The notes under the pieces: model-generated | Told to the model about the DNA's origin: nothing | What the model saw: the letters and a program-made list of their open reading frames with translations, nothing else | Databases searched by the model: none | Shown: in pieces, positions 13,201 to 64,000 of the stretch | Numbering within the stretch: the stretch's first letter is position 1 | How the letters are laid out: each line of letters starts with the position of its first letter | From: Lutibacter citreus | GTDB taxonomy: Bacteria; Bacteroidota; Bacteroidia; Flavobacteriales; Flavobacteriaceae | DNA length: 64,000 bases | NCBI RefSeq assembly: GCF_003260195.1 | Contig: NZ_QEIH01000007.1 | Location: 124,001 to 188,000 of the forward strand | Direction: 5' to 3' | Made by a program: the position numbers and the translations under genes

Positions 13201-16200
13201 AAATAAGTAAAGATAATGGCACAACCTGGAACAATATTGTTAATGATGAATTTTATGCTGGTGCTGAAACTGAACAATTGATTATAAAAAACACTCCTTT
13301 TGAATTTAATAATTACAAATTTAGAGTACAATTAAAAAAAGATGGAAATTTTTGCGGTGCTATTTCTGAAGAAGCAAAAATAACTGTAAACCCAGTGCCA
13401 ATAGCTAATTCGGTTTCAAATATAGAACTTTGTGACAATCTAAACGATGAAGACGATACAAATGGGATAGTTCAAAATTTCAATCTAGAAACTCAAACAA
13501 AATTAATTTTAGGAACTCAATCAGAAGCAAATTATACAGTAACTTATCATTTAAATAAAGAAGATGCAGCTTCTGGAGAAAATCATATTATCAGTCCTTT
13601 TGAAAACATATCAAGTCCACACTCTCAAACTATATTTGTTAGTGTTTTAAATAACAAAACACTATGCCGAAATTATAACCTTACGTTTAATCTAATAGTT
13701 AATTCACTCCCAAAAGCCAATGCAGCAACAGATATTAAAGAATGTGATAATTTAGAAGACGGAGATGATTTTAATGGTATTGTTCAAAGTTTTAATTTAG
13801 AAAGTAACACCAATGTTATCTTAGGAACTCAACCAAAAGAAAAATTTTCGGTATCATATCATTTATCAAAAGAAGAAGCTATTACAGGAAACAACCCATT
13901 ATCTAGTCCGCATTCAAATAAATTAAGTCCAGATTTACAAACAATTTATGTACGAGTTTTAAATAAAACAACGGGCTGTGTAAATCCTCATTCAACTTTT
14001 AATGTAATTGTAAATAAGCTTCCTATAGCAAATCTTGTTAATGATTTAGAAGAATGTGATAATTTAAATGACGGAAACGATACTAATGGAATTATTCAAA
14101 ATTTTAATTTAGAAAGTTTAACAAGTGTTATTTTAGGAACTCAAAATAATGCAGACTTTAAAGTAACTTATCACTTAAAAGCTGACCAAGCTATCTCCGG
14201 AAATAATCCAATATCAAGTCCGTTTGAAAATAAAAATAGTGCCCATACTCAAAAAATTTATGTTAGAATTTTAAATAAAATAACTGGATGTGTAAATCCT
14301 CATTTAAGCTTTAATATAATAGTTAATCCATTACCAATTTTAAAAAATAAAACTGTTATTTTAGAACAATGTGATGATGATGAAATTACAGATGGTTTTA
14401 GTATTTTTAATTTAAACGAAGCAAATCAACTCATTTCTAAAGATTATTTAAATGAAACATTTGAATTTTATTTAGACAATGGATATTCAACTAAAATTGA
14501 AGATCCTATCGCTTATAAAAATCCATCAGCAATTAATAGCGTTGTTTTTGTGAAAATAATTACAACAAACGGATGTGAAAGATTTGCTAAAATTCTTTTA
14601 AAAGTTGGTGTAACTCAAATCCCTCCAGATTTTGAAGTATTAAATTATTATAAATGTGAAAACCTTCCATCTAATAACCAAGACGGTAAAACCTTTTTTA
14701 ATTTTAGTGACGCAGAACAAATAATTAAGAATAGTAACCCCCTATTTTCATTACAATCTGTAACAATTTCATTTTATGGAAATTTAGAAGATGCACTTTC
14801 AGAAATAAATAAAATAGAAGACATTTCAAATTACCAAAATACAACAAAGTGGTTTCAAAAAATATACGTACGCATAGATAGTGATGAAGTAAATGCCTGT
14901 TTAGGATTAAATCATGTTGTAACATTAAATGTTGAACCATTACCTATTGCAACTCCAATAACTATTAAAAGACAATGTGATGATAATCACGATGGTTTTT
15001 ATCCTTTTGATGTTTCAACTATTGATTATAAAATTAGAAATGGACAAAAAGATGTTACAATTAGATACTTTAATGAAAAAGGAATTGAATTACCTAGCCC
15101 TTTACCTAATCCCTTTTTAACTAAAAATCAAACTATCAAAATTAAAGTTACAAATAACAATACCAACACAACAAATGGTCCTTGTTCTGATGAAACAGAA
15201 TTGATATTTATTGTAGATGATTTACCTCAAATTTATCCTTTAAATGTTGTTCCAGTATGTGATGAAGAAGATAACAACGACGGTATTTATGATTTTGATA
15301 CATCTAGTATTCAAACTACATTATTAAGAAATCAAAAGGATGTAGAAATTCATTATTATGATCAAAAAGGAAATGAATTATCAAGTCCGCTACCAAATCC
15401 ATTTACAACTTTCTCACAAACTATTTCAGTTGAAGTAATAAATCCAATTAATAGAACCTGCAAAGCAAATAGTTCATTTGATTTAATTGTTAATGAATTA
15501 CCAGAATTTGAAGTAACTACACCTCAAATAATTTGTATTACAGCACCTCAGTCACCTCTTGTTTTAACTCCCAATATTGGAAATTTAGATCAAAATTCCT
15601 TTGAATATTCTTGGCATAATGAAAATGGAAAATTACTTTCAAATGAATTTGAATTCAACGTTTTTAAAGCAGGCCTTTACTATATAACACTTACTAAAAA
15701 TGACGGGTCTTTTTGTTCAAGAACTAAAGAAATACAAGTAAATCCTTCTGCAGTTGCCAATTTTGGTATTTTTGATATAGATATAGTTGATGATTCTGAG
15801 AATAATACTATCACCATTAAAACAGATAATTTAGGTATTGGAGATTATGAATTCTCTCTAGACAATGAAAATTTCCTATACCAAGATAAACCATTTTTTG
15901 AGAAAATTAAACCAGGAATACACACTATTTATATCAGAGATAAAAATGAATGTGGAATTAAATCTGTTGATGTTCCAATAATAGGATATCCAAAATTTTT
16001 CACTCCAAATAATGATGGTCACAACGATACTTGGAAAGTAATTGGAGTAAATGACCAATTTTATGGAAATGCAAAAATTTACATTTTTGATAGATTTGGA
16101 AAATTAGTTCATCAAGTAAAACCAAACGAAAATGGTTGGGATGGAACATTAAATGGCAGACCTTTACCTTCTTCGGATTATTGGTTTACTGCAGAATTAA

Positions 16201-16259
16201 TTGATATTAAAGGGAATATTAGAATTAAAAAGAGTCATTTTAGCCTTGTTAGAAGGTAA
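10266..16259 (+). CDS. Giant IgGFc-binding-like, multi-repeat T9SS type B cargo protein
   Basis: 1997 residues from a GTG start. A signal peptide covers about residues 1-25 (ending QISFAQ). Residues ~26-460 resemble the IgGFc-binding N-terminal family (VGTEYIFVKGDGRDEW, ETSAPVFAYQGVG). From ~540 to ~920 come calcium-binding thrombospondin-type-3-like acidic runs (DIDDDGIIDNLDIDNDNDG and later copies). Residues ~1050-1760 hold seven tandem modules, each opening with a Cys-Asp/Glu and DG...FNL pattern; the first three repeat every 104 residues exactly. The last ~90 residues (from PKFFTPNNDGHNDTW to FSLVRR) are the type B C-terminal sorting domain that directs export through the type IX system. 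Likely a surface adhesin or matrix protein; the ligand is unknown. Two further cargo genes follow. Confidence 0.88.
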   Translation: MNNFSFNHLLFTFLCLVISQISFAQLSKTHYIPPLTCSEFGNANPESQYIYISTPSENEVPYTVIPVGGIGGNISGFVSKSTPKEIYIGTGYSQLFVQSSKTSSITNNKGYIVEAEGVIYVSIRMNAGGGAQAGALVSKGLSALGKEFRVGSFTNENPQDNYLNFVSVMATEDRTKVDFSNLPSGLIIKNYSGTTPVSINLDKGESYILATNSFSSVINRDGLIGCLVSSDKDIVVNCGSANGSFHNGNGRDYGIDQIVGIEKVGTEYIFVKGDGRDEWENILIVAHTNGTSIKINGTTSGPTLNAGEYYLIEGNIYNSAGNMYVETSAPVFAYQGVGATTSEANQGMFFVPPLSCETRGNVDNIAAIESIGTTYFTGGITIVTKKNATVTINGNPISNYSSIGPSNVNGKADYVTYKVTGLFGNVSVECDDELYCSYFNYNGSATSGSFYSGFPTAPEINFDAVFKTKGICIPNITLEALNSENFDTLEWFYDDGSGFKTTGNKTNELIPLKPGRYRLDGYINCTKLILQSFEVPLGYCPDDIDDDGIIDNLDIDNDNDGILNCTESKGDVVLNLTNTANPIAIFNDGSTLSNLATGSLNSSNNSSTLNSFTGNSNGNFKSVISATSDGSNNYKISFTKNINFKFSENTTISHSIIEGEKFIVRIAPTDKNITLIDPDNRLLVDTNFDEIFEKGVSKISGSEIHFKVNPSPTGKTPFQFFANSVSGFSFIHELKNTNKASTFNGVFSLTCYFKDNDNDGIEDSLDLDSDNDGIPDIIENSGKKVILRGVDIDENGLDDVFDIISIPIDTDNDKIVDFYDLDSDNDGIYDLFESGSNLPDTNFDGIIDNINKTIGLNGWDNNAESSPDSNIIGYTLNDKDNDLIFSYIDSDSDGDECSDVLEAGFSDSNNDTYLGNSTVVIDENGIVSNATDGYTLPNSNYGTFSEIIIIEQPKDLASCIFYDSVFEITTNSVNSYQWQISKDNGTTWNNIVNDEFYAGAETEQLIIKNTPFEFNNYKFRVQLKKDGNFCGAISEEAKITVNPVPIANSVSNIELCDNLNDEDDTNGIVQNFNLETQTKLILGTQSEANYTVTYHLNKEDAASGENHIISPFENISSPHSQTIFVSVLNNKTLCRNYNLTFNLIVNSLPKANAATDIKECDNLEDGDDFNGIVQSFNLESNTNVILGTQPKEKFSVSYHLSKEEAITGNNPLSSPHSNKLSPDLQTIYVRVLNKTTGCVNPHSTFNVIVNKLPIANLVNDLEECDNLNDGNDTNGIIQNFNLESLTSVILGTQNNADFKVTYHLKADQAISGNNPISSPFENKNSAHTQKIYVRILNKITGCVNPHLSFNIIVNPLPILKNKTVILEQCDDDEITDGFSIFNLNEANQLISKDYLNETFEFYLDNGYSTKIEDPIAYKNPSAINSVVFVKIITTNGCERFAKILLKVGVTQIPPDFEVLNYYKCENLPSNNQDGKTFFNFSDAEQIIKNSNPLFSLQSVTISFYGNLEDALSEINKIEDISNYQNTTKWFQKIYVRIDSDEVNACLGLNHVVTLNVEPLPIATPITIKRQCDDNHDGFYPFDVSTIDYKIRNGQKDVTIRYFNEKGIELPSPLPNPFLTKNQTIKIKVTNNNTNTTNGPCSDETELIFIVDDLPQIYPLNVVPVCDEEDNNDGIYDFDTSSIQTTLLRNQKDVEIHYYDQKGNELSSPLPNPFTTFSQTISVEVINPINRTCKANSSFDLIVNELPEFEVTTPQIICITAPQSPLVLTPNIGNLDQNSFEYSWHNENGKLLSNEFEFNVFKAGLYYITLTKNDGSFCSRTKEIQVNPSAVANFGIFDIDIVDDSENNTITIKTDNLGIGDYEFSLDNENFLYQDKPFFEKIKPGIHTIYIRDKNECGIKSVDVPIIGYPKFFTPNNDGHNDTWKVIGVNDQFYGNAKIYIFDRFGKLVHQVKPNENGWDGTLNGRPLPSSDYWFTAELIDIKGNIRIKKSHFSLVRR
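13431..15545 (+). repeat. Seven tandem CD-DG-FNL modules inside the giant protein
   Basis: Conserved Cys codons open the modules at 13431, 13743, 14055, 14370, 14655, 14976 and 15258. Spacings are 312, 312, 315, 285, 321 and 282 nt. Modules 1-3 are closely alike (CDNLNDEDDTNG / CDNLEDGDDFNG / CDNLNDGNDTNG, each followed by FNLE...ILGTQ). Modules 6 and 7 form a second similar pair (LPSPLPNPF / LSSPLPNPF). This points to duplication of about 104-residue units, with recent copying in two places. Confidence 0.88.
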
Positions 16260-16315
16260 CTCTTTTATTCTCTTACTTTAATTTTTTATATTTACTAAAT
16301 ACAACTTTAGTATAA

Positions 16316-19150
16316 ATGAAAAAAGGACTCCTTTTAATCACTTTGTTTACTTTCCTAAATTCTTTTTCACAAGGAGAAGCTAACATTTGGTATTTTGGAG
16401 AAAAAGCTGGATTAAACTTTAATTCTGGCAAACCCGTTTCAATAACCAATAGTGAATTAAGTACACGTGAAGGTTGTTCATCTTTTTCTGATTCTAAAGG
16501 AAATCTACTATTTTATTCAGATGGAACTACGGTATGGAATAAAAATCACATTCCAATGCCAAATGGAAGAAATTTAAAAGGTGGTTCTTCAAGCTCTCAA
16601 TCTGCTATGATTATTCCAAAACCAAAAAGTTCAACTTTGTACTATCTTTTTACTGTGGGATCTTTAGCAAATGAAAACCCTGGTTTTAACTATTATACAA
16701 TTGATATGACCAAAGACAGTGGTAATGGTGATATTGTGCAAGGCCCTATTGATTTAAATGAAGGTAGAGAATTTGAATGGTCGGAAAAAATAGCCGCAAT
16801 TAATGGTAAAGAGTGTGAAACCTTCTGGGTAATTTCTTATGTTTCTAATGAATTTAAAGCTTTTAAAATTACAAAAGATGGTGTTGCTGTTAACTCAATA
16901 TCAACAATGGTAGATTTTATAGCTAATGATAGAAGAGGTTATTTAAAAATATCTCCTAATGGAAAAAAAATTGCAATTGCTCATATGAATGATAAAACGT
17001 TGGTTTTATATGATTTCAATAACAGTACTGGAGTAGTTAGCAACCCTCAATATTTTGAATTCCCCCAACCTGCTGATAGCCCTTACGGTATTGAATTTTC
17101 AGGAAGTGGAGATAAATTATATGTACATACCAGTAATGATTTTTTCAGTCAAGAGGAGCATATTTGGAACAATCCAGAAAACCATAAATCTGCATTATAT
17201 CAATTTGATTTAACATTTACCAACGCTTTTCAAATTTCAAATTCTAGGGTACAAATAGATTCTCAAAACCTATATAGAGGCGCGCTTCAATTAGGACCAG
17301 ATCAGAAAATTTATAGAGCACTTTCTTCTTCTTACAATAATGGTACTAACTATTTGGGTGTTATTGAATACCCTGAAAATAATGGCTTAGAATGTTCATA
17401 TAAACATAATGAAATTAATTTGGGTTTAAAAAAATCAACTCAAGGACTACCACCGTTTATTGCTTCAATATTTTATCAAATTGAAATATTAAATGCATCC
17501 AAAAATGATGAAATTGTCACCAATAAAAAAATAAAACTATGTGTTGGAAGTAATTATACTTTTAATACTGAAAGTCTTTCTGGAACTCCTACCTATGAAT
17601 GGAAATTAAACGATTCTATAATTAGCCATAAAAGTAATTTATCCATAAAAAACATTCAAAAATCTAGTGAAGGATTTTACCAACTAGAAGCTCATATTGT
17701 AAATGATTGTGGCAAGAAAATTATTTACAAAGGTAAATTTAATGTAGCTGTTTTTGATCCTCCAATTATTCCTACTAAAATTATTTATAACCAATGTGAT
17801 ATTGATACTGATAGTTTTGATGGAATTACTCAATTTAATCTTGAAAACAAAATTCCAGATATTATAAATAACAATCCTAATTTAGAAGTAACTTTTTATA
17901 AGTCTGAAAGTGATTATGAAAATGAAAAGCCTATAGAAACCCCTTCAAATTATATATCTTCAACAACAAATAATTTACTCTTTAAAGTTAGCAACTTACA
18001 ATCTGAATGTTCGTCTATTGGTAAAATGGAATTAAACGTGTCTCCCACTAGTTTAGAAAACTATAATACTATATATGTTTGTGAAAATGATAATGGACTA
18101 GCAACTAAACATAGTCAATCTAGCGGTGTTGGAAGTTTTAATTTTGAATTAAAAAGAAATGAAATAAAAGACTTATTTAACACATCTGATATTAGTGTAG
18201 AGTTTTATGAAACTTCTAAAGACGCACAACTTCAGCAGCATCCTATTTCAGGTACTAAAGAATATGCAAATCGTGAAATATTCGTTAATTTCTCTAATAA
18301 AAACAGCTGTATTTCAATAGGTAAATTTAATCTTGTAGTTAACAAAATACCTACACCAAATTTTATTGAAGAGGATGTTATTTTATGTGTTGGAAGTATT
18401 GATGATAATCCATCTCAAGAATATTTTATCGCTTTAGATGGAGATTCTCATGTAAATACTGATACATATAAATGGTATTTTAATGAAGAACCAATTTTTG
18501 AAGCTACAAAACCTATTTATTATGCAAATAAAGAAGGGAATTACAGAGTTGAAGTTACTAGAACATTTAAAAATGATATTACTAATAATCACGATACTAC
18601 ACAATGTGAAGGGTTTAGTATTTTTAACGTAATTGAATCTAACAATCCTGTTTTGTATCCTAAATTTATTACAATAATTGATGATTCTTCAAACAATAGT
18701 ATTACAATTGATAAGGATAAATTGGGTATTGGTAATTATCATTTCTCTTTAGATGATCTTTATGGCGAATACCAAGATGAACCTGTTTTTGAAAATGTTT
18801 CAACAGGTTTTCATACCATTTACATTGAAGATAAATATGGTTGTGGTTTTGATCAATCTACAGTTTCAATAGTTGGATTCCCTAATTTTTTTACACCTAA
18901 CAATGATGGTATAAATGATTATTGGAGAATTTCAGGAGTGAATAGCAATTTTTACCCATCTTCAAACATTCATATTTTTAATAGATACGGAAAAATAATA
19001 ACAATTTTAAATCCAGATTCTTATGGATGGAATGGTACTTTTAACGGTAAACAACTCCCCTCTTCGGATTACTGGTATTCTGTAGAATTAACTGATAAAC
19101 TAGGAAACAAAAGGTATAAAAAAGGGCATTTCAGCTTAATTAGAAGATGA
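16316..19150 (+). CDS. Secreted beta-propeller-like T9SS type B cargo protein
   Basis: 944 residues. Signal peptide ~1-19 (MKKGLLLITLFTFLNSFSQ). Residues ~20-390 are a propeller-like domain (EANIWYFGEKAGLNFNSG, EGCSSFSDSKGNLLFYSDG, LKISPNGKKIAIAH) shared with the next gene. A PKD/Ig-like part follows (FNTESLSGTPTYEWKLN). Then come at least one clear CD-DG-FNL module (NQCDIDTDSFDGITQFNLE) and a degenerate one. Residues ~855-944 are the type B sorting domain (FPNFFTPNNDGINDYW ... FSLIRR). It follows the giant gene by 56 nt on the same strand. Probably surface-displayed or released; function unknown. Confidence 0.87.
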   Translation: MKKGLLLITLFTFLNSFSQGEANIWYFGEKAGLNFNSGKPVSITNSELSTREGCSSFSDSKGNLLFYSDGTTVWNKNHIPMPNGRNLKGGSSSSQSAMIIPKPKSSTLYYLFTVGSLANENPGFNYYTIDMTKDSGNGDIVQGPIDLNEGREFEWSEKIAAINGKECETFWVISYVSNEFKAFKITKDGVAVNSISTMVDFIANDRRGYLKISPNGKKIAIAHMNDKTLVLYDFNNSTGVVSNPQYFEFPQPADSPYGIEFSGSGDKLYVHTSNDFFSQEEHIWNNPENHKSALYQFDLTFTNAFQISNSRVQIDSQNLYRGALQLGPDQKIYRALSSSYNNGTNYLGVIEYPENNGLECSYKHNEINLGLKKSTQGLPPFIASIFYQIEILNASKNDEIVTNKKIKLCVGSNYTFNTESLSGTPTYEWKLNDSIISHKSNLSIKNIQKSSEGFYQLEAHIVNDCGKKIIYKGKFNVAVFDPPIIPTKIIYNQCDIDTDSFDGITQFNLENKIPDIINNNPNLEVTFYKSESDYENEKPIETPSNYISSTTNNLLFKVSNLQSECSSIGKMELNVSPTSLENYNTIYVCENDNGLATKHSQSSGVGSFNFELKRNEIKDLFNTSDISVEFYETSKDAQLQQHPISGTKEYANREIFVNFSNKNSCISIGKFNLVVNKIPTPNFIEEDVILCVGSIDDNPSQEYFIALDGDSHVNTDTYKWYFNEEPIFEATKPIYYANKEGNYRVEVTRTFKNDITNNHDTTQCEGFSIFNVIESNNPVLYPKFITIIDDSSNNSITIDKDKLGIGNYHFSLDDLYGEYQDEPVFENVSTGFHTIYIEDKYGCGFDQSTVSIVGFPNFFTPNNDGINDYWRISGVNSNFYPSSNIHIFNRYGKIITILNPDSYGWNGTFNGKQLPSSDYWYSVELTDKLGNKRYKKGHFSLIRR

Positions 19151-19189
19151 TTTTGATTATTTTTCACAAAAATTATTAATAAATACCAA

Positions 19190-21976
19190 TTGAAACGTTT
19201 AGGTTTAATCATATTATTTTTATTTATAAACTCCTCTTTGATTTTTGCTCAAAGAGAAGCTGGGATATGGTTCTTTGGAAAAAACGCTGGTCTGGACTTT
19301 AATAGCGGATCACCAGTAGCTCTAAATGGCGGTCAATTACAGACTACCGAAGGTTGTTCAACAATATCTGATAGAAATGGAAATCTTTTATTCTATACTA
19401 ACGGATCAACTGTTTGGAATGCAAAACACCAGATAATGCCAAATGGAAATGGTTTGTTAGGGCATAAATCTAGTACACAATCCGCTATAATAATCCCAAA
19501 CCCGAGTAATCCTGATATATATTACATATTTACTGTTGATCAACCTGATGAAAAAAATGCTGATGATATCCTAACAAATGATATAGATGATGGTATTAAT
19601 GATGGCTTAAATTATAGTGAAGTTAATATGAGTTTAAATGGTGGATATGGTGCTATAAATTCTTCAAAAAAAAACATCCATTTAGTAACTTACAATCCAA
19701 ATAACCCTAAAGAGGTAGCTTATAAATGTTCAGAAAAAATAACCGCAGTTCAACATTTTGATGGAGACTCTTACTGGGTAATAACTCATTTTATTAACAA
19801 GTTTTATGCTTTTAAAGTATTAAATTCTGGAGTACAACCAACTCCTGTTGTTTCTACAACTGCAACAGAGGTTTCTACTGTAGGTTACAAAAACAATGCA
19901 ATTGGCTATTTAAAATCATCTCCAAATGGTAAAAAACTGGCCATTGCACATGCTGGTACAAAATCTTCAACTCAAACAGGTCCAAAAAATCAAATAGAAA
20001 GAAAAACTGGAAAAGTACTATTGTATGACTTTGACAATGTAACTGGTATTGTCTCAAACCCAACATCTTTATTAAGTTCAACCAATCCTTACGGTCTTGA
20101 ATTCTCTCCAAAATCTAAAAAATTATATGTAACTGTTAATCATTTTGATGATGCAGGAATTACTGAAGGCAGTTCTCTTTTTCAATTTGATTTAGAAAAA
20201 AATGAAATTGCAATTAATAAAGTTTTAATAGTTAAAAATGAATATTCTGCAGGAGCATTACAAATGGCTATTGATGAAAAAATTTACAGAGCGGGATATG
20301 TTCCTTTCTCTAGTGGTAGTAAAACTCTTTCTGTTATTAATTATCCAGAAAAAAACGGAAGTGAATGTGATTATAAATCTAATACAATTAATTTAAATGG
20401 TAATATTGCTTTACTTGGTTTACCTCCTTTTATCCAATCTCTTTTTCTATTCAATTTTAAATTTGAAAATACTTGTTACGGAGATTCAACACATTTTTAT
20501 ATAACTACTTTAGAAACTATAGATTCCGTTTTATGGGACTTTGGCGATGGTTCAACATCAACAAATATTGAAGCTTATCATACATATAAAAATCCAGGAA
20601 AATATACTGTTACATTAACAAAAACAGTTAATGGCGAAATAAAAGAGCCTAGTATTAAGGAAATTATTATTAAAGAAAAACCATTAATTTTAACTTCAAT
20701 TTATCAATTAGCACAATGTGATTCTTATGATAGTGACCCTAATGATGGACTGGCTATATTTAATCTTAAACATAGTATTGAATCATTAACCTTAAACAAA
20801 TCAGAAGATTTTGAGGTCTATTTTTATTTAAATAATAATGATGCTGAAAATGATATTTATAATCAAAACCCATTGCCAACATCTTATAAAAATACAGTAC
20901 CTAACCAAATAATAACTGCAAAAGTAATTTACAAAGATTCTAATTGCTTTAGTTTAGGAAAAGTACAACTTTCCGCAAATTCGAGTATTTCACTTCATAC
21001 AAATGATATAATTAGTTGCGATTTAGGAGAAGGAATTGCCGAATTTAATTTAACAACTAAAAAGAATGAAATAATACAGACATTAAACCTTCCTAATACG
21101 GTTTCCTTTTTATTTTTTGATAATGAAGAAAATGCTATAAACAATACACTTCCTCTAAATGAAATTTACATATCAAGTGAAAAAACAGTGTATTTTAAAG
21201 TAGAAAATAATGGTATTTGCTATGGTTCTGGTTTGTTTAATTTAAAAGTAAACTATTTTCCTCCAGTAGAATTAAATGAAAGCTTATTTATTTGTGAAAA
21301 TAATTTTCCAATAAAAATAAGTCCAAATATTCCTATAGACCAACAAGGGAATTATGATTATAACTGGAGTAATGGCGAAAAATCACACGAAATTTCAGTA
21401 TCTAATGAACAACAAATTTCAGTTACTATTACAGATAAAATTTTATTATGTAAAAAAATAAAAACATTTAAAATTATAAAAGTAACCGCGCCAAAAATTA
21501 TTGATATTGAAATCAATCAAACCAAAAATGAAGTAAAAGTTTTGACTGAAGAGAATCATGATAATTTATACATTCTTAATGATATTAATGGAATTTATCA
21601 AACTGAAAATATTTTTAGTAATGTTAGAGCTGGTACACACACCGTTTATGTGAAAAACAAGTACAACTGTGAAGTTTCAACTAAGAAAATTTTTGTTTTA
21701 GGATTTCCAAAATTTTTCACTCCAAACAATGATGGCATTAATGATGTATGGGAAGTAAAGGGTTTAAATTTTAAAGAATTTAGATATTCCAAGATTCATA
21801 TATTTGATCGTTTCGGTAAATATTTAGCTACTATAAATCCAAACTCAAGCTGGAATGGTTTTTATAACAATGCTTATTTACCTTCAACAGATTATTGGTT
21901 TTCAATAAATATTACTGATAAAAACAATTCAATAACAAAAAATTATAAAGGGCATTTTAGTTTAATTAGAAGATAA
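19190..21976 (+). CDS. Secreted PKD-containing T9SS type B cargo protein (paralog of the previous gene)
   Basis: 928 residues from a TTG start. Signal peptide ~1-22 (ending SSLIFAQ). The N-terminal ~400 residues are clearly paralogous to the preceding protein (REAGIWFFGKNAGLDFNSG, EGCSTISDRNGNLLFYTNG, LKSSPNGKKLAIAH). A PKD domain sits at about residues 440-500 (VLWDFGDGSTSTN). One CD-DG-FNL module (AQCDSYDSDPNDGLAIFNLK) follows. The type B sorting domain spans ~839-928 (FPKFFTPNNDGINDVW ... FSLIRR). It lies 39 nt after its paralog, so this looks like a tandem duplication followed by divergence of the middle region. Confidence 0.87.
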   Translation: MKRLGLIILFLFINSSLIFAQREAGIWFFGKNAGLDFNSGSPVALNGGQLQTTEGCSTISDRNGNLLFYTNGSTVWNAKHQIMPNGNGLLGHKSSTQSAIIIPNPSNPDIYYIFTVDQPDEKNADDILTNDIDDGINDGLNYSEVNMSLNGGYGAINSSKKNIHLVTYNPNNPKEVAYKCSEKITAVQHFDGDSYWVITHFINKFYAFKVLNSGVQPTPVVSTTATEVSTVGYKNNAIGYLKSSPNGKKLAIAHAGTKSSTQTGPKNQIERKTGKVLLYDFDNVTGIVSNPTSLLSSTNPYGLEFSPKSKKLYVTVNHFDDAGITEGSSLFQFDLEKNEIAINKVLIVKNEYSAGALQMAIDEKIYRAGYVPFSSGSKTLSVINYPEKNGSECDYKSNTINLNGNIALLGLPPFIQSLFLFNFKFENTCYGDSTHFYITTLETIDSVLWDFGDGSTSTNIEAYHTYKNPGKYTVTLTKTVNGEIKEPSIKEIIIKEKPLILTSIYQLAQCDSYDSDPNDGLAIFNLKHSIESLTLNKSEDFEVYFYLNNNDAENDIYNQNPLPTSYKNTVPNQIITAKVIYKDSNCFSLGKVQLSANSSISLHTNDIISCDLGEGIAEFNLTTKKNEIIQTLNLPNTVSFLFFDNEENAINNTLPLNEIYISSEKTVYFKVENNGICYGSGLFNLKVNYFPPVELNESLFICENNFPIKISPNIPIDQQGNYDYNWSNGEKSHEISVSNEQQISVTITDKILLCKKIKTFKIIKVTAPKIIDIEINQTKNEVKVLTEENHDNLYILNDINGIYQTENIFSNVRAGTHTVYVKNKYNCEVSTKKIFVLGFPKFFTPNNDGINDVWEVKGLNFKEFRYSKIHIFDRFGKYLATINPNSSWNGFYNNAYLPSTDYWFSINITDKNNSITKNYKGHFSLIRR

Positions 21977-57233: not shown

Positions 57234-58280
57234 ATGAGATTACTTAAAACAAAACCTTTTAATAACTGGGAATTTTGGCCTTCTTATATGTTTTATATTC
57301 CCATACTTCCATATGCCATTTATTTAGCTATAAAAGCAAGAAATTTAGTTTTTTATTCGGCCACAAACCCAAGTATAAATCATTCTGGTAATGGCAGTGA
57401 ATCTAAATTTAAAACTTTAAATTTAATTCCGAATGAATTTATACCTATTTCCATTTTTATAAAAAAGAAAGAAGATTTAAATTGGGTTCTGAATGAAATT
57501 TCTATAAAAAAATTAACGTTCCCTCTTATTATTAAACCAGATATTGGATTTAGAGGTTTGCTTGTTAAGCAACTTCATTCTAAAAAAGATTTACAAAATT
57601 ATTTATTAAAGTACAATTGTATAGATTTAATATTGCAAGAATTTATTGATTTTAAAAATGAATGTGGTATTTTTTATTATAGAATACCAAATGAAAAAAA
57701 TGGAGCAATTAGTTCCATAACTTTAAAGAAATTTTTGACTGTTATTGGAGATGGTTCTTCTAATTTAGAAAAATTAATTAAAGAAGATAAAAGAGCTTTT
57801 CATTATTATGATTTTCTAAAAGAACTGCATCATAAAGATTTTAAAAACATCCCAAACAAGAATACCAACATTCAACTAAACGTTATAGGAAACCATTCAA
57901 AGGGAACTCAATTTATTAATGGCAATCATCTTATATCAAAAGATTTAAATAAAATTATTGATCAATTTATGAAACAAATACCAGATTTTTATTACGGTAG
58001 ATTAGATCTTAAATTTAATTCTTTTGAAAACTTAATTAAAAAAAATGAATTTAAAGTTCTTGAAATAAATGGTATTATTTCAGAACCCACTCATATTTAT
58101 GATTCAACTTCTATTAATTATTTCAACGCTTTAAAAAGTTTAAAACTTCATTGGGGCATTATCTATAAAATAGCTGTGAACAATAATAAAAATGGTGTGA
58201 AATATGATACAGTGCCTGTTTTTTTAAAAAGCTTAATAGATTTAAAAAAGTATACTAAAATTATAAAAAAACTAGTTTAG
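57234..58280 (+). CDS. ATP-grasp family ligase of unknown substrate
   Basis: 348 residues. The N-terminus (WEFWPSYMFYIPILPYAIYLAIKAR ... ATNPSIN...SESKFKTL) matches a known but uncharacterised ATP-grasp family sometimes labelled D-alanine-D-alanine ligase-like. ATP-binding lysine region FPLIIKPDIGFRG (~residue 95), LILQEFID, and the magnesium site KVLEINGIISEPTHIYD near residue 280. The D-Ala ligase label is unproven. Co-transcribed with murQ and DUF6095, suggesting a ligase step linked to cell-wall fragments. It ends 4 nt into the opposing gene. Confidence 0.8.
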   Translation: MRLLKTKPFNNWEFWPSYMFYIPILPYAIYLAIKARNLVFYSATNPSINHSGNGSESKFKTLNLIPNEFIPISIFIKKKEDLNWVLNEISIKKLTFPLIIKPDIGFRGLLVKQLHSKKDLQNYLLKYNCIDLILQEFIDFKNECGIFYYRIPNEKNGAISSITLKKFLTVIGDGSSNLEKLIKEDKRAFHYYDFLKELHHKDFKNIPNKNTNIQLNVIGNHSKGTQFINGNHLISKDLNKIIDQFMKQIPDFYYGRLDLKFNSFENLIKKNEFKVLEINGIISEPTHIYDSTSINYFNALKSLKLHWGIIYKIAVNNNKNGVKYDTVPVFLKSLIDLKKYTKIIKKLV

Positions 58281-59434
58281 CGTTTTAAATAAATCCAACC
58301 TTGCCAATTAATATCTTCATCATGAAATTCTAAAAAGTAAAAATAAGTTCCTACTGGTAATCCTTTACTTTTATTAAGAGTTAAATCATGCTCAGAAACT
58401 CCTCCCCAGGAATTATCATAGCCTTTTTTAGAGTAAAGTAATGTTCCCCATCTATTGTAAATATAAATTGTATTATTTGGTCTCTGCTCAATACCTTCAA
58501 TTACAAAAGTATCATTTAAACCATCCCCGTTTGGTGTAATACCAAAATTATGACTTTCAGTAACTGTAACTCCCTGCACCTCACGATGATCAGTTCCAAT
58601 TGTTAACACTTCATAATCATCAGGAATAAAAGAGGTTGATTTTATTGTACCAGAATCAATATCTCCTTTAATTTCTTCCCCTCCTAAATCTACCCATTTT
58701 CCGGTTGCTTTAGACCAACCAACCACACGTAAACTCTCAATATCTGACGTTAATTGATCTATATTACTTTCAGTATTCCAAGTTAAAATTAATGAAGTTT
58801 CAACAGAACCATTTAAATCCCAAAATTCAGTATCGTTTATTTTTTCTAATATTAATTGTTTTGTATCTGTATTAAAGGATTTTGTAAAAACCGAAGGGTT
58901 ATTTGGATCTTCTTTAAAATAAGCTCCTTTATAAATACTATTTTTTACCTGATTTGGAATAATCATTGGTCTAAAGGAGTCATTATCTCCAATTGGAAAG
59001 ATAAATTCACCTTCGCTTACTATTTTAGCATAGCCATCTACATGAGTATAATCTCCTTCACCTCCATATAACTGATGATTTAAAAAATCTAGTGAAATCT
59101 CATTATCATCTCTTGGTGTTACTACTTTACCTGTAATAAATGATAAATTATTAGATACTCCCAATGATGTTTCTAAAAACAAATTATCATATACATCAAT
59201 CTCTAAATCATTAAAAATAGCCTTATTACTACCCGAAACTTTTAAAAAGTTATTTAGACTATAAAACCCTACTGAACCAGAATTTTTATCGAATTTACCA
59301 TTATTTACCAAATCTATATGAAAACCTATTGCTCCATTATCATGTATTTGTATATTACCATTATTTTGAAATGCAGATTGTGCAAAACAAAAATGACCAA
59401 CAAAAAATATCACAATAAAAAATAGATCTCTCAT
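58277..59434 (-). CDS. Secreted T9SS type B cargo protein (last gene of the surface operon)
   Basis: 385 residues. Signal peptide ~1-18 (ending HFCFAQ). The central part is a beta-rich region with GNIQIHDNGAIGFHIDLVNNG and LEINDTEFWDLNG-like blocks. The C-terminus (SHNFGITPNGDGLNDTFVIEG ... GWIYLKR) is the type B sorting domain of the type IX secretion system, here as ITPNGDG instead of FTPNNDG. Downstream end of a four-gene run; the next upstream gene is 6 nt away. Likely the exported surface anchor or tip of that run. Function unknown. Confidence 0.85.
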   Translation of the reverse strand: MRDLFFIVIFFVGHFCFAQSAFQNNGNIQIHDNGAIGFHIDLVNNGKFDKNSGSVGFYSLNNFLKVSGSNKAIFNDLEIDVYDNLFLETSLGVSNNLSFITGKVVTPRDDNEISLDFLNHQLYGGEGDYTHVDGYAKIVSEGEFIFPIGDNDSFRPMIIPNQVKNSIYKGAYFKEDPNNPSVFTKSFNTDTKQLILEKINDTEFWDLNGSVETSLILTWNTESNIDQLTSDIESLRVVGWSKATGKWVDLGGEEIKGDIDSGTIKSTSFIPDDYEVLTIGTDHREVQGVTVTESHNFGITPNGDGLNDTFVIEGIEQRPNNTIYIYNRWGTLLYSKKGYDNSWGGVSEHDLTLNKSKGLPVGTYFYFLEFHDEDINWQGWIYLKR

Positions 59435-59440
59435 TCTTTT

Positions 59441-60109
59441 CTATTTATAAGCTGTATAGAAAACTAGAACTTTTTCTTTTTGAAATTGCCCCCAATTAGC
59501 AGATCCTTTTTCATAATCTGGAATAATTGTAAATCCATCATTTGTTAAAACCCCTAATTTACCTCTAATAACTCCTAACTTATTTCCATCTTGATCTCCA
59601 TACCTTAAACCAATGCAATATGACGAACTAGAATATCTAGAGATATCATTAATTGAATTACCATTACCTCCAACAAAAATAACTCCTTGTTTAGTACCGT
59701 TTATAAAACCATTCATTGTTCCAAATGAATTATTAAAACCTGCATTATTATTTCCGCTACCATTATTACCATCAGTACCAAATACCTCAACATTTGCATG
59801 TGCCACAAATGTAATTTGGCTCGGTTTAAAACCTAAACCTGAAACTGAAATACTACTATTATTACTAACTGTAAAAGAACCTGTATAAACACTTTGTCCT
59901 CCTTCATTACTAACCCAGTTTGTACCATTATAAACCATCATTTTTTTAGTATCTGTATTATAGACTAAGGCTCCTTCTTCTAAAGGTGTAACCGAATTTA
60001 TTTCGGTAGTTGAACCTAAAGGAATTCCCATAACAGAATATTCATCTAATTGAGAAAAAACTATTAAACTATTAAAAATAAAAAAAAATATTAATATATA
60101 TTTTTTCAT
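59441..60109 (-). CDS. Secreted protein with YNGTNWV motif (surface operon)
   Basis: 222 residues, signal peptide ~1-20 (ending LIVFSQ). It has the motif EEGALVYNTDTKKMMVYNGTNWV, frequent in flavobacterial tail-fibre-like or surface proteins. The middle is Gly/Asn-rich (GTDGNNGSGNNNAGFNN). The end (GQFQKEKVLVFYTAYK) is a beta-rich fold. No known enzyme motif. It lies 2 nt after the 328-residue gene and 6 nt before the type B cargo gene. I do not recognise a functional family. Confidence 0.72.
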   Translation of the reverse strand: MKKYILIFFFIFNSLIVFSQLDEYSVMGIPLGSTTEINSVTPLEEGALVYNTDTKKMMVYNGTNWVSNEGGQSVYTGSFTVSNNSSISVSGLGFKPSQITFVAHANVEVFGTDGNNGSGNNNAGFNNSFGTMNGFINGTKQGVIFVGGNGNSINDISRYSSSSYCIGLRYGDQDGNKLGVIRGKLGVLTNDGFTIIPDYEKGSANWGQFQKEKVLVFYTAYK

Positions 60110-60111
60110 AA

Positions 60112-61098
60112 TTATCTTGTATAAAATGTAATTGTTATGGGTGCAATATTACTCTTATTATAATTAGTACCTGCAGGTGAAGGTTTGTTCCCATTAACAG
60201 TTACGCTAGAATAAGGACCTAATGATGATGTACTAGTAATTAAATGATTATAGGTTCCATCCCCATTATCTGCTGAATTTAGCGTATAGCTACCTGAAGA
60301 TATATTAGGAATAGTACTATAAGGTGTATTACTAATCAACACTTCATAATCTATTGATGCTCCTTTACTATTTCTAAACTGCATGTGAAAATCATTTGCA
60401 TCCCCAAAATCATCTAAAACCAACGTACTTCCATCAATTGTACCTATAGGTGTTACTCCTACAGTTACAGGTGGATTATTAGTTTCTGTTACCTGAATAT
60501 CTGTTATAATTTCTTTTGTTGCTGAAGTATTAAAAGACCAAACTTCATCTACTAAAACATCTGCTGTAGTACCATTATCACCTGTAAGAATAATCACATC
60601 GAAACCTTTTGCTGTCTGTGTACCTGCTACAACTGAAACTATTCTTGAGTCTCGTCTATTATTAGCATCTTCTACTTGCGCTCCAAAAGTAATATCATAA
60701 TTAGCACCATTTGGGTGTTTTACTCCAAACTCAACAGTAAACCTTCCAGTTTCAGTTTTAGAAACCTTACAATTAATATTAAAAGAATTATCTCCATTAG
60801 CTTGTACTTGTGCAGCCGCAAATACATAACCAATAGTTTCTTTTTTAAACTCAATTTTAGGAGAAGTTCCATCCGCTCCTGCTGGTCCTGCTGGACCTTG
60901 AGGACCTGATTCTCCCGTTATTTTTCTAAGTTCTCCTGTTTGTATACCAACGTATAATTCATCCGTATCAGTTGTAATATAGTGGTCTCCTTCACCCGCA
61001 TTTGAAATAATCGATACTTCTGAAGATAATATTTTAATTTGAGAATACCCAAAAATAATACCTCCTAATAAAAATATAATAGTTAGAATTTTTTTCAT
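60112..61098 (-). CDS. Secreted protein with short collagen-like segment (surface operon)
   Basis: 328 residues, signal peptide ~1-19 (GGIIFGYSQ). Near residue 63 a short collagen-like run GES-GPQ-GPA-GPA-GAD-GTS (six Gly-X-Y triplets) precedes a long beta-rich domain. Collagen-like runs of this kind often trimerise fibres in phage tails and bacterial surface proteins. Two nt separate it from the next gene. No sorting domain is recognised at the C-terminus, so export may rely on Sec alone or on a different signal. Function unknown. Confidence 0.75.
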   Translation of the reverse strand: MKKILTIIFLLGGIIFGYSQIKILSSEVSIISNAGEGDHYITTDTDELYVGIQTGELRKITGESGPQGPAGPAGADGTSPKIEFKKETIGYVFAAAQVQANGDNSFNINCKVSKTETGRFTVEFGVKHPNGANYDITFGAQVEDANNRRDSRIVSVVAGTQTAKGFDVIILTGDNGTTADVLVDEVWSFNTSATKEIITDIQVTETNNPPVTVGVTPIGTIDGSTLVLDDFGDANDFHMQFRNSKGASIDYEVLISNTPYSTIPNISSGSYTLNSADNGDGTYNHLITSTSSLGPYSSVTVNGNKPSPAGTNYNKSNIAPITITFYTR

Positions 61099-61109
61099 TT
61101 GTAAATCTA

Positions 61110-63482
61110 TTATTTAATTCGTTTAACTATTAATGAAGATCCTTGATCAATCATAACAGGTATACCATTATTACTTCCACTTGCATTACTAAATCTTTGT
61201 CCTTTTATTTTAATTGTAGCATTTGCAGCTAACTGAACAATTTTAGTAACCGTTGCTGTAGAACTTCCAACATTATTATTTCTTGAATAAGTATAAGCTC
61301 TTGTTCCTGGTAATTCAGAACCACCAGCCTCTAAATAGAATTCTGCACCTGCTCTTGCGTTATTACTTGTTTTTGCAGAAACTCTATATATAATTTCATA
61401 ACGGCCAGCATTTGTAACTGTAATGGAATTTGAAGAAGTTGTATAATCAGGATCCACAATTCCACCTGTATTTAATTCAATATCGTTAAATGTATTTAGT
61501 GCTAAAATTTGTCCACCAATTGCATCATAAATTTCAGCTACTGTTGGTGAAAATACATTTATCCATTTAGTTCCTGTGCTTGTTGAAGACAACACTTGTC
61601 CTGCCGTTCCAGCATTTCCATCTGAATCTAAATAACTACCTACTACACTTAAATTTTTGTGAATATTAACTTGTTGATTAGCATCTATTCTTAACGCTTC
61701 TGTTCCTCCAGTTGTTAATGCCAACTCATCATCTACATTACTAAACATTCCTGTATTAGAATCATCTGTAAATCTATAAGATGGCTGCCCTGCAGTTCCT
61801 CTAGAATTATTTAAACCACTGGTTCTTGTTGTTCCTCCTATATTTAAAGTATTAGATCCTGACAATGCTGAATTACCTATATACAATCTACTATTTGTAT
61901 TATTCCAAAATAATTCGGAATTATTTTCTGTTGGTTTTCCATCAGACCCTGCAAAAAATACAGAACCAGTTGTTCCTGTATGCGCTAAATCTGTTAATGG
62001 CAGTGTAGATGCAACTCCATTTATAGTACTTGTCAAATTCCCTGAGACTACACTTAATGCGTTTGTATTAATTATTGGAGCTGATAAAGCTCCATTTGAA
62101 TCTGTAACTGTTAATGTGTTTGCCGATGAAGTAAAACCTGTATTAATTTCGTTTGTTATGCTACCATCAACTTCAGTTCCTAATATCTCATAAGGACTAG
62201 TTGAAGTACCTAAACCCAAAACTTGGTTAATTCCTCCTCCAGTAATTTTTGTTTCTGATCCATCTGCTGCCAATGATGATAAATTCACCATTTTAGGAGT
62301 TCCTCCTGATTCTATACCTACTTGTAATTCATAGGTTGAACCATTAAAAGCAAAAAAGTCAATTTCTTGATCATCTGAAGATATAGTACTTATTTGATGC
62401 CAATTACTACCATCACTTTGTATTTGTAATGAAGATTCATCAACTATTGTAGTAGACGCAGAATTTGTCATATCTAAATATGACGTTATTGTTCTTGTAC
62501 TCCCTGAGTTATTTTTTAAAATATAAATTCTTCCTTCGCAAGTATTTGCGTTTGGTAAAGTTATATTGTGATTTCCAGCAATAATAACACTATAATGATC
62601 TTCACCTAATGTTAAATTACTTGTTGTTGTAAAAATTGATTTTGAAATTGATCCCTTTACTTGAAAAGTACTATTTGCAACATTTCCTGTATCATTTCCA
62701 TTATAAGTTCCATCTATAGGAACACCTGTAGGATTAATATTAATACCAAATCTAGGTTTTGCTCCTGATGAATTAACACTTCCTTGCACTCTAAATAACT
62801 CTTTGTGAGTTTTATCGTAGTAATTGTAACGTTTAAATATAAAAGGCTCTGCTCCATCATCACCAATAATAAACTCTAATCGTCCATTATTGCTTGCCCC
62901 TGCTGAACCAATTTCAAATAAATCTGAACCACCTGCACTTCCTTTTAATCTAAAACTCCCATTAGTAGTAGTATAAAACATTGGTTTATAAAACGAAGCT
63001 CCACTAGCTGCAAACTGTAATGCTGAAGTTGAACCATTTCCATTTACAAAAACCAAAGGCTGATCATTATCTGTATAATCAGGATAAGATTGAGTTAAAT
63101 TTAATATTTGCCTTCTTCCAAACTCTAACATTGGCAAATTATTTGATCTAATTTGCATTTTTACATCATCTGTAGTTCCTAAGAAATTAGTTCCTGATGT
63201 TAAACCTGAGTTTCCTGTTAAAGACCAAAAATCACTCGCAAATGATAACCAAGTAGTTCCATCCCAAACCTTAACTGCGGTTGGAGTAGCATTGGTATCA
63301 AACCATAAATCATCTATTTGAGGATTTATGGGAGCTGAATTTGAAGTTGTTACTTTATTATTAGTAACGTTAATTTTTGTCCCTTTTTGATTAATAACAG
63401 TAACCTGTTGCGCAAAACCTATTTGCACAAAAGCTACACATAGTGTAAATAATAAAAATCTTATGACTTTTTTATAAAACAT
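61110..63482 (-). CDS. Secreted tail-fibre-like protein with C1q-like end (surface operon)
   Basis: 790 residues, signal peptide ~1-24 (ending QIGFAQ). The N-terminal part includes PQIDDLWFDTNATPTAVKVWDGTTWLS, a tail-fibre-like motif also seen in the shorter genes of the run. The middle has fibre-like repeats (LGTSTSPYEILG, DDSNTGMFSNVDDELALTTGG, GQVLSSTSTGTKW). The C-terminal ~140 residues (GGQILALNTFNDI ... NAGRYEIIYRVSAKT ... QGSSLIVKRIK) resemble the C1q/TNF-like jelly-roll heads that form trimers. Likely a trimeric surface fibre. First gene of the four-gene run, 11 nt before the next. Confidence 0.75.
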   Translation of the reverse strand: MFYKKVIRFLLFTLCVAFVQIGFAQQVTVINQKGTKINVTNNKVTTSNSAPINPQIDDLWFDTNATPTAVKVWDGTTWLSFASDFWSLTGNSGLTSGTNFLGTTDDVKMQIRSNNLPMLEFGRRQILNLTQSYPDYTDNDQPLVFVNGNGSTSALQFAASGASFYKPMFYTTTNGSFRLKGSAGGSDLFEIGSAGASNNGRLEFIIGDDGAEPFIFKRYNYYDKTHKELFRVQGSVNSSGAKPRFGININPTGVPIDGTYNGNDTGNVANSTFQVKGSISKSIFTTTSNLTLGEDHYSVIIAGNHNITLPNANTCEGRIYILKNNSGSTRTITSYLDMTNSASTTIVDESSLQIQSDGSNWHQISTISSDDQEIDFFAFNGSTYELQVGIESGGTPKMVNLSSLAADGSETKITGGGINQVLGLGTSTSPYEILGTEVDGSITNEINTGFTSSANTLTVTDSNGALSAPIINTNALSVVSGNLTSTINGVASTLPLTDLAHTGTTGSVFFAGSDGKPTENNSELFWNNTNSRLYIGNSALSGSNTLNIGGTTRTSGLNNSRGTAGQPSYRFTDDSNTGMFSNVDDELALTTGGTEALRIDANQQVNIHKNLSVVGSYLDSDGNAGTAGQVLSSTSTGTKWINVFSPTVAEIYDAIGGQILALNTFNDIELNTGGIVDPDYTTSSNSITVTNAGRYEIIYRVSAKTSNNARAGAEFYLEAGGSELPGTRAYTYSRNNNVGSSTATVTKIVQLAANATIKIKGQRFSNASGSNNGIPVMIDQGSSLIVKRIK

Positions 63483-63537
63483 ATTTACTATTCTATTAAT
63501 CTAAATTTTAAAAATTAACTATTTATTATTTTTATTC

Positions 63538-63591
63538 CTTGTTTGAAGAGTTGATTACAAAGCAACCAACTCTTCATATATTTTAAACAAG
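63538..63591. repeat. Long stem-loop upstream of the surface operon
   Basis: Nested inverted repeats: outer CTTGTTT (63538-63544) with AAACAAG (63585-63591) and inner GAAGAGTTG (63545-63553) with CAACTCTTC (63567-63575). It lies in the 130-nt gap between the partial gene and the 790-residue gene. No U run follows on the minus strand, so it is not a standard terminator; it may be an attenuator or processing site. Confidence 0.5.
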
Positions 63592-63612
63592 AAATATAAT
63601 TTAGTGATTAAA

Positions 63613-64000
63613 TTATTTAATATATTGGATTTCAATTATGTCTCCAACATAAAATGGAACCTCTGCATTATCAAAAGTAACAGTCCCAGCTGCAGCAATT
63701 GAAAAATCTGTTCCAAAACGTAGTTTAGCCCCATTTCTATATACAAATAATTTAGCAGCTGTACTAGTTGCTGTTAAAGTTGGTAACCCAACAACTGCAA
63801 TATCAGTAGTTCCTGAAGTTACATTAGCAGTTTGAGGAGATTCTAATCTTATTCCACTAACTAAATCTGAAGCTAACATTTTTTTAGTTACTCCAGTTGC
63901 TTCATCTCTAACTAATAAAGTATAACCAGTTGTTGCTGTCTCATCTGCAGCTGGAACATCGGTAGCAGCTATATAATCTATTCCTTGAATTTTGAAAGTA
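63613..64000 (-). CDS. Tail-fibre-like protein, 5' end cut by window edge
   Basis: At least 128 residues, open to the right edge in the frame beginning at 63999; an internal Met at 63879 is not the true start because the frame continues upstream without a stop (TFKIQGIDYIAATDVPAADETA ... LVRDEATGVTKKMLASD). The C-terminus (RNGAKLRFGTDFSIAAAGTVTF, then GDIIEIQYIK) is a small beta domain typical of phage-tail or surface fibre ends. It lies upstream of the surface run in the same direction, and probably belongs to the same locus. No function can be assigned. Confidence 0.7.
   Translation of the reverse strand, partial: TFKIQGIDYIAATDVPAADETATTGYTLLVRDEATGVTKKMLASDLVSGIRLESPQTANVTSGTTDIAVVGLPTLTATSTAAKLFVYRNGAKLRFGTDFSIAAAGTVTFDNAEVPFYVGDIIEIQYIK

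What the first reader, a model, noticed from the sequence alone, without database searches (positions are those of the whole stretch)
58277..64000. Four-gene secreted fibre operon capped by a type IX cargo protein
Four consecutive minus-strand genes, separated by 11, 2 and 6 nt, each have a signal peptide. They carry tail-fibre-like motifs (YNGTNWV, WDGTTWLS), a collagen-like run, a C1q-like head, and finally one type B sorting domain. A fifth fibre-like partial gene lies just upstream. No phage structural, lysis or integration gene is near, so this looks like a host surface-fibre apparatus that may use one T9SS cargo as its anchor or tip. I do not know a described system of this composition.
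Basis: partly seen in the sequence, partly recalled or inferred. Interest (0 to 1): 0.72.

Follow-up and report, generated by a model that had tools for sequence, protein, structure and literature searches.

The report
Secreted fibre genes with T9SS partner
A flavobacterium-like bacterium carries a block of six genes that appears to build tail-fibre-like threads on the cell surface, in which one small protein bears the only known export tag; close versions of this pairing recur in many related bacteria, and I found no description of it.

Summary
The window cuts a six-gene, one-strand cassette (58277 to about 65383): five signal-peptide proteins with phage-tail-fibre-like, collagen-like and C1q/TNF-like modules, then a 385-residue protein ending in a T9SS type B signal ("cap"). 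No prophage was seen to the right. The cap's 270-residue body has no Pfam family but defines a family: strong matches in 94 of 397 genomes of the same family. Of 71 distinct core caps (49 genomes), 65 have a fibre-marked gene immediately upstream; 0 of 59 other type B genes do. No T9SS signal was found in the C-termini of 87 genes adjacent to caps. Diverged caps are followed by a PorP/SprF shuttle gene (17 of 20), then a PorE-like gene (16). One relative has the cap body on a type A signal, again beside a fibre gene. In both same-genus genomes examined the site is empty.

Best reading: a modular surface-adhesin fibre whose cap is the T9SS-exported adaptor that displays or anchors it. Linkage, modules and a predicted C1q fold are shown; export route, contact, trimerisation and ligand are inferred. 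New variant of a known kind (T9SS type B surface adhesins); possibly hitch-hiking T9SS export, untested.

The parts
58277..59434 (-). Cap protein, 385 aa: signal peptide, about 270-residue body (no Pfam or PHROG match), T9SS type B sorting domain at residues 296-385. Last gene of the cassette.
   Evidence: family alignment A1 (24 sequences, mean column identity 47%); AlphaFold2 mean pLDDT 86.6, all-beta body; no convincing PDB fold match (best E 2e-3, TM 0.2 or less).
59441..60109 (-). Fibre subunit, 222 aa: signal peptide, N-module (PLEGALVYNTD...YNGTNWV), C-terminal head shared with relatives
   Evidence: head in 8 ORFs, ending at the ORF C-terminus in 6.
60112..61098 (-). Fibre subunit, 328 aa: signal peptide, short collagen-like run, tail-fibre-like domain (PHROG 5073, E 0.0019), C-terminal domain shared with L042
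61110..63482 (-). Fibre subunit, 790 aa: signal peptide, WDGTTWLS module, two shared middle domains, C-terminal C1q/TNF-like head (residues 641-790)
63483..63612 (-). 130-nt intergenic stretch with a 15-bp hairpin (MFE -30.4 kcal/mol, z -6.8), no U-run; possible processing or attenuation element
   Evidence: no Rfam match in L009.
63613..64000 (-). C-terminal part of the 239-aa secreted fibre-like protein (whole gene L009:7614-8333, about window 63613-64332). The first gene of the cassette lies wholly outside the window: L009:8386-9384 (about 64385-65383), 332 aa, N-module QVKVGNNP...SLC, W-motif repeats, and a C-terminal domain that also matches the 239-aa protein.

Best explanation
A host-encoded, accessory surface-adhesin cassette. 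Five Sec-exported proteins, or in most relatives one long protein, form tail-fibre-like, collagen-like or C1q/TNF-headed fibres: a constant N-terminal module, a variable stalk and a swappable C-terminal head. The sixth protein, the cap, has a conserved all-beta body and is the only member with a T9SS signal. It is most likely the adaptor that the T9SS puts on the cell surface and that holds the fibre there, through its type B domain bound to a PorP/SprF-like outer-membrane barrel. Shown here: gene content, one-strand operon, fibre-cap linkage, no T9SS signal found in the fibres, a predicted C1q fold, PorP/PorE linkage of diverged caps, an empty site in two congeners. Inferred: that fibre and cap touch, that the cap is base rather than tip, trimerisation, that fibres cross the outer membrane with the cap, and the adhesive function.
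For:: fibre-marked gene immediately upstream of 65 of 71 core caps (49 genomes) and 13 of 20 diverged caps, versus 0 of 59 other type B genes; 61 of 71 core gaps are 30 nt or less; the N-module starts within 60 residues of the N-terminus in 100 of 102 matches over 68 loci; head-type fragments end at the ORF C-terminus in 18 of 20, 11 of 12, 6 of 8 and 18 of 24 matches (but 8 of 20 for the first gene's C-terminal domain); no T9SS signal among the families listed for 87 C-termini of genes adjacent to caps (87 of 91 caps gave one; E 0.01 NCBIfam, 0.001 Pfam); PHROG tail-fibre families; Collagen, BclA_C, C1q, Collar, Peptidase_S74. PorP/SprF immediately downstream of 17 of 20 diverged caps, then a TPR/PD40/OmpA PorE-like gene in 16; in G143 the cap body carries a type A signal (TIGR04183 23.2 bits, cut-off 23) and still neighbours an N-module/collagen gene; empty site in both same-genus genomes. 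PorP/SprF and SprA present in the genome. PMC9143113 (passages): PorE-PorP-type B substrate complex as surface anchor.
Against: No physical or genetic evidence links cap and fibre; linkage may mean shared regulation only. No shuttle gene is next to the window's cap, and one was seen next to only 1 of 71 core caps. The genome's one unpaired PorP/SprF (P0007) and the unpaired one of F. johnsoniae CI04 are mutual best matches (48%), but the cap's signal is 35-42% identical to 10 of 13 paired-type signals (18-27% to the other 3) and 30-37% to 5 unpaired ones: a small difference that does not favour P0007. P0007-like proteins are near-universal in the family, so not cassette-specific, and one core-cassette genome (G091) lacks a close one. 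6 of 71 core and 7 of 20 diverged caps had no fibre mark immediately upstream (of the six, three are contig-end fragments and one an ORF-caller artefact). Fibre marks were partly learnt from cassette loci and control loci span other Bacteroidota, so 0 of 59 shows specificity, not an independent rate. In G143 the gene order is reversed. Related loci are not independent.
Confidence: 0.6

Rival explanations
1. Fibres and cap are separate proteins that are only co-transcribed; the fibres reach the surface, or stay in the periplasm, by another route, and the cap is an ordinary type B adhesin.
For: No contact shown. One signal-bearing protein among six, with no shuttle gene beside it. In G143 the order is reversed.
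Against: The pairing holds for 65 of 71 core caps in 49 genomes, survives a swap of the sorting signal in one genome, and tandem copies seen carry both partners.
Confidence: 0.22
2. The cap is the tip or a second adhesive head of the fibre rather than its base.
For: Cap genes are usually last, next to genes whose products carry head domains; the cap body is a conserved all-beta domain.
Against: The body is well conserved (mean column identity 48%) while heads are swapped between cassettes; diverged caps sit with PorP and PorE-like anchor genes.
Confidence: 0.12
3. Remnant prophage or contractile-injection-system tail fibres.
For: PHROG tail-fibre similarity. The viral structure library gives weak hits to the cap model, among them phage-labelled proteins named 'gliding motility-associated C-terminal domain' and tail proteins (E 7.5e-5 and weaker, TM 0.54 or less).
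Against: Signal-peptide-like starts on all six proteins; no phage or injection gene seen by eye in 27 kb to the right or in the window's last 12 kb; P0001 and P0004, the two of six that were searched, have no match in 50,697 phage records; what is missing in the congeners is exactly this gene block.
Confidence: 0.03

Closest known systems
T9SS type B substrates with PorP/SprF shuttles (SprB-SprF, Fjoh_3952-Fjoh_3951-Fjoh_3950, PG1035-PorP-PorE)
   Same: Signal peptide plus TIGR04131/PF13585 signal; diverged caps have the same substrate-PorP-PorE gene order. Literature seen: PMC12618676 (Discussion section and passages), PMC9143113 (passages).
   Different: In the passages seen the substrate is treated as the (putative) adhesin itself; here the signal-bearing protein is small and the adhesin-like parts are separate genes in which no signal was found. 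Core caps have no adjacent shuttle.
BclA/BxpB-type collagen and C1q/TNF proteins of the Bacillus exosporium
   Same: C1q/TNF head by fold; collagen stalks in relatives.
   Different: Spore surface of a Gram-positive, no T9SS (recalled); here export across an outer membrane is needed.
Phage and eCIS tail fibres (catalogue in PMC12923769, passages)
   Same: Modular fibres with varied C-terminal binding domains including C1q and S74.
   Different: Those are parts of a particle; these have signal-peptide-like starts and a T9SS partner, and no particle gene was seen.
GhpA grappling hook protein of Aureispira
   Same: Only convincing PDB sequence match of the cap profile, limited to the T9SS signal region (9flp, E 3e-14; four others at E 0.68-0.86).
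   Different: GhpA is one 5898-residue chain with the signal region at its own end; here fibre and signal are on separate proteins.

Membership tests
T9SS type B substrate (cap only) | C-terminal TIGR04131/PF13585 domain over cut-off | tested here: met
   93.5 bits (cut-off 27) and 55.2 bits (cut-off 35).
T9SS type B substrate (cap only) | Sec signal peptide | tested here: met
   Home-made rule only; sequence.
T9SS type B substrate (cap only) | PorP/SprF shuttle gene directly downstream (common, not universal) | tested here: not met
   Not in the window; seen at 1 of 71 core caps, 17 of 20 diverged caps and 55 of 90 control type B genes (some loci end before the next gene). Unpaired substrates are known (PMC12618676, passages).
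T9SS type B substrate (cap only) | Genome encodes the translocon and shuttles | tested here: met
   SprA_N 527 bits in a 2349-residue frame; 7 PorP/SprF. Other T9SS parts not tested.
T9SS type B substrate (cap only) | Actual secretion by the T9SS | not testable with these tools
   Needs experiment.
T9SS substrate (fibre subunits) | Own T9SS signal | tested here: not met
   No such match for the 790-, 328- and 222-aa proteins and the C-terminal part of the 239-aa protein (Pfam and NCBIfam) or the 332-aa protein (Pfam only), nor in 87 C-termini of genes adjacent to caps.
SprB/GhpA-like single-chain T9SS adhesin | Fibre and signal in one polypeptide | tested here: not met
   Separate genes in the window and in the cassettes listed.
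C1q/TNF-headed fibre (BclA-like) | C1q/TNF jelly-roll head | tested here: met
   Predicted model only: pLDDT 89.4, Foldseek probability 1.00 to BxpB, 4-1BBL, ExsFA, BclA.
C1q/TNF-headed fibre (BclA-like) | Collagen stalk | tested here: inconclusive
   About 6 triplets in the window's 328-aa protein, no Pfam Collagen match; 219 to 408 triplets in some relatives.
C1q/TNF-headed fibre (BclA-like) | Trimerisation | not testable with these tools
   Only monomer prediction was offered.
Prophage or eCIS tail fibre | Linked particle genes and no signal peptide | tested here: not met
   (ORFs read by eye).

The most novel reading that the evidence does not exclude
A two-partner branch of type IX secretion: multi-subunit tail-fibre-like and collagen/C1q fibres without a sorting signal of their own are carried across the outer membrane, or captured on it, by one dedicated signal-bearing adaptor. 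That would be hitch-hiker export by the T9SS feeding a swappable receptor-binding head system, spread as a removable cassette through Flavobacteriaceae.
Probability: 0.35. Interest if true: 0.82.

Novelty: new variant of a known kind. Interest (0 to 1): 0.62.

Why it matters
T9SS cargo is described as carrying its own C-terminal signal (PMC12618676, abstract). A widespread cassette in which only one small protein has the signal and no signal was found in the long fibres makes it directly testable whether the T9SS can carry or display partners. It also points to a large pool of host surface fibres with exchangeable heads in this bacterial family, likely (inference) to matter for attachment and as phage receptors and easily mistaken for phage tail proteins, and it suggests a role for a cap body that Pfam does not cover.

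Tried and rejected
Rejected: prophage or eCIS remnant (signal-peptide-like starts; no particle gene seen; no phage-record match for the two proteins searched). Not accepted: that the unpaired PorP/SprF P0007 is the cap's shuttle. It is the mutual best match of the unpaired shuttle of F. johnsoniae CI04 among 16 PorP proteins compared, but the cap's signal is not nearer to unpaired-type signals, and P0007-like proteins are near-universal (91 of 100 genomes at E 1e-20; 81 of 100 at 240 bits or more, counted by eye). CI04 genes could not be mapped to Fjoh locus tags.

Led nowhere: fold match for the cap body (viral library: 3 hits at E below 1e-3 with TM under 0.35); PDB sequence searches of P0002, P0003 and P0004 (none); whole-length alignment of the 790-aa protein misplaced domains, so only its head was folded; sigma-70 scan at chance level; Rfam (none). 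Papers: searches returned no title or abstract start describing a fibre-plus-type-B-cap system; the library is open-licence PMC only and most listed papers were not opened, so this is not proof of absence.

Limits of the counts: a home-made ORF caller; regions chosen by me from hit lists, mostly with room upstream; duplicates with identical last 300 residues counted once. A first, smaller count gave 23 of 32 immediately upstream, 25 of 32 within three genes, and 0 of 60 controls. One body match without a type B signal (L222, G143) is outside the 71 and 20 and is described apart. Core means body E below 1e-60; one core cap (L056) is PorP-linked. The body model was built from 24 of these caps. 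The 94 of 397 was counted by eye (123 at E 1e-10 or less; 29 of them weaker than 1e-60), the window's own genome included. Class-wide, 115 of 295 genomes match at 1e-10, mostly weakly and in longer frames, so the body module is not confined to the cassette.
Full report
WHAT IS THERE. The window is C33:124001-188000 of a 5.1-Mb genome, taken as Flavobacteriaceae from named contigs with close caps. Reading on to the right completes the operon: six minus-strand genes, in order of transcription 332, 239, 790, 328, 222 and 385 aa, with gaps of 52, 130, 11, 2 and 6 nt. All six have a signal-peptide-like start (home-made rule). To the right follow a DinB-like gene and glycan-type genes; to the left lies an ATP-grasp-like gene on the other strand (these names are my reading of the sequences, not a database result). 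The only TTG-N17-23-TAnnTTTG pattern (Bacteroidetes promoter, recalled) in both strands of the 19.9-kb locus L009 lies at the head of the first gene, just before an in-frame TTG that would give a clean signal peptide. This is a pattern match, not proof.

THE CAP. The 385-aa protein has a type B T9SS signal. Its body, about 270 residues, has no Pfam or PHROG match, is modelled with confidence as all-beta (24 sequences) and has no convincing solved relative (in one search only the T9SS signal region matches well, to the GhpA grappling hook protein). With a body-only profile, 123 of 397 genomes of the family match at E 1e-10 and 94 at better than 1e-60 (the second count by eye). Both same-genus genomes in that sample lack it. 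Across the class, 115 of 295 genomes match at 1e-10, mostly weakly and inside longer frames. So the module is more general, but the dedicated cap is a family of its own; the 71 distinct core examples are 376-448 residues long, median 385.

LINKAGE. I fetched regions around caps. Of 71 distinct core caps in 49 genomes, 69 have a same-strand gene within 200 nt upstream, 61 within 30 nt, and in 65 the gene immediately upstream carries a fibre mark (N-module, shared head, collagen run or W-motif). The six exceptions are three contig-end fragments, one unmarked 321-aa gene with marked genes behind it, one ORF-caller artefact, and one PorP-linked cap. Diverged caps: 13 of 20. Type B genes without the body: 0 of 59. 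The marks were partly learnt from cassette loci, the control genes come from wider Bacteroidota, and the loci are related, so this is specificity rather than an independent rate. Among the regions fetched, 18 of 49 genomes hold two to four core caps, several in tandem. Most closed cassettes have one fibre gene (41 of 55); with a 250-nt gap limit five genes were counted once, which fits the window's own cassette; L043 has more secreted genes upstream at wider gaps.

MODULES. The N-module of the first gene matches 102 ORFs over 68 loci and starts within 60 residues of the N-terminus in 100. Head-type fragments end at the C-terminus of their ORF in 18 of 20 (middle of the 328-aa protein), 11 of 12 (C1q-like), 6 of 8 (222-aa head) and 18 of 24 (middle of the 790-aa protein); the C-terminal domain of the first gene does so in only 8 of 20. 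This is the pattern of a constant base and exchangeable tips. The C1q-like head of the 790-aa protein models at pLDDT 89.4 and matches Bacillus BxpB, ExsFA and BclA, 4-1BBL and C1q domains; its sequence profile points there weakly (best E 0.01). The C-termini of 87 genes adjacent to caps match PHROG tail-fibre families, Collagen (8), BclA_C (3), C1q (1), Collar (1) and Peptidase_S74 (1), and no T9SS signal was listed.

ANCHOR. Diverged caps, including one in F. johnsoniae CI04 (where a 72-aa ORF separates it from a collagen-bearing gene), are followed by PorP/SprF in 17 of 20 and then by a PorE-like gene in 16. PorP binds a type B substrate and PorE binds PorP and the wall (PMC9143113, passages); five F. 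johnsoniae operons are said to hold a PorE homologue, a substrate and a shuttle (PMC12618676, Discussion). An adjacent shuttle was seen at 1 of 71 core caps. The genome has ten type B signals and seven PorP/SprF; by position six are paired, leaving four signals and one PorP, P0007, unpaired. P0007 and the unpaired PorP of F. johnsoniae CI04 are each other's best match (48%). But the cap's signal is 35-42% identical to 10 of 13 paired signals (18-27% to three) and 30-37% to five unpaired ones, so which shuttle serves the cap is open.

A NATURAL SWAP. In G143 the body (E 6e-87) carries a type A signal (TIGR04183 23.2 bits against a cut-off of 23; PF18962 23.7 against 27) and sits 89 nt upstream of an N-module/collagen gene of 1138 aa. 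The order is reversed and the signal type changed, yet body, T9SS signal and fibre stay together. This is the best single argument that export of the body by the T9SS and the fibre belong together; it is one case, with a score just at the cut-off.

MOBILITY. In G269 and G047 (same genus) the ATP-grasp-like and DinB-like genes are direct neighbours (8-nt overlap and 26-nt gap), with largely collinear flanks. The 7.1-kb cassette was therefore gained or lost as a unit (two congeners only). Its GC, 0.309, exceeds all 103 overlapping 7.1-kb windows of the rest of the window (mean 0.288, maximum 0.300). In G003, of another genus, a cap lies beside the matching DinB-like gene in the other orientation.

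MECHANISM. Most likely the six products are Sec-exported; the cap is recognised by the T9SS (SprA present) and handed to a PorP/SprF-type barrel; the fibres, in which no signal was found, are carried with it or captured by it at the surface, giving threads with exchangeable heads for attachment. Confidence is 0.6 for a cap-held surface fibre and 0.35 for hitch-hiking export. No experiment backs contact, trimerisation or ligand.

NOVELTY. Nine paper searches listed nothing matching in an open-licence library. Parts are known (type B signals, PorP/SprF, C1q/collagen fibres); the combination looks undescribed: a new variant of a known kind.

Noticed in passing
window 10266-21976: Three consecutive plus-strand genes (1997, 944 and 928 aa) each end in a type B T9SS signal; no PorP/SprF was found near them in the genome search. 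They may be the natural clients of the unpaired shuttle P0007.
   Followed up: partly
window 63483-63612: Strong 15-bp hairpin without a U-run between the second and third cassette genes (z -6.8).
   Followed up: partly
L222:2383-3414 and L280:9883-10914 (G143): Cap body fused to a type A instead of a type B T9SS signal, beside a collagen-rich fibre gene.
   Followed up: yes
L044-L054, L194-L231 and others: In many relatives the cassette sits in one chromosomal neighbourhood, next to a 244-aa MQRRSFIKK-type gene and a 254-aa MRRGSWKIR-type gene and, further on, a phosphoglycerate-mutase-like gene (names are my reading).
   Followed up: no
G000:C8:8041-8253 (L282): A weak match to residues 8-79 of the 790-aa protein elsewhere in the genome (41%, 36 bits), in a 245-residue frame.
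   Followed up: no
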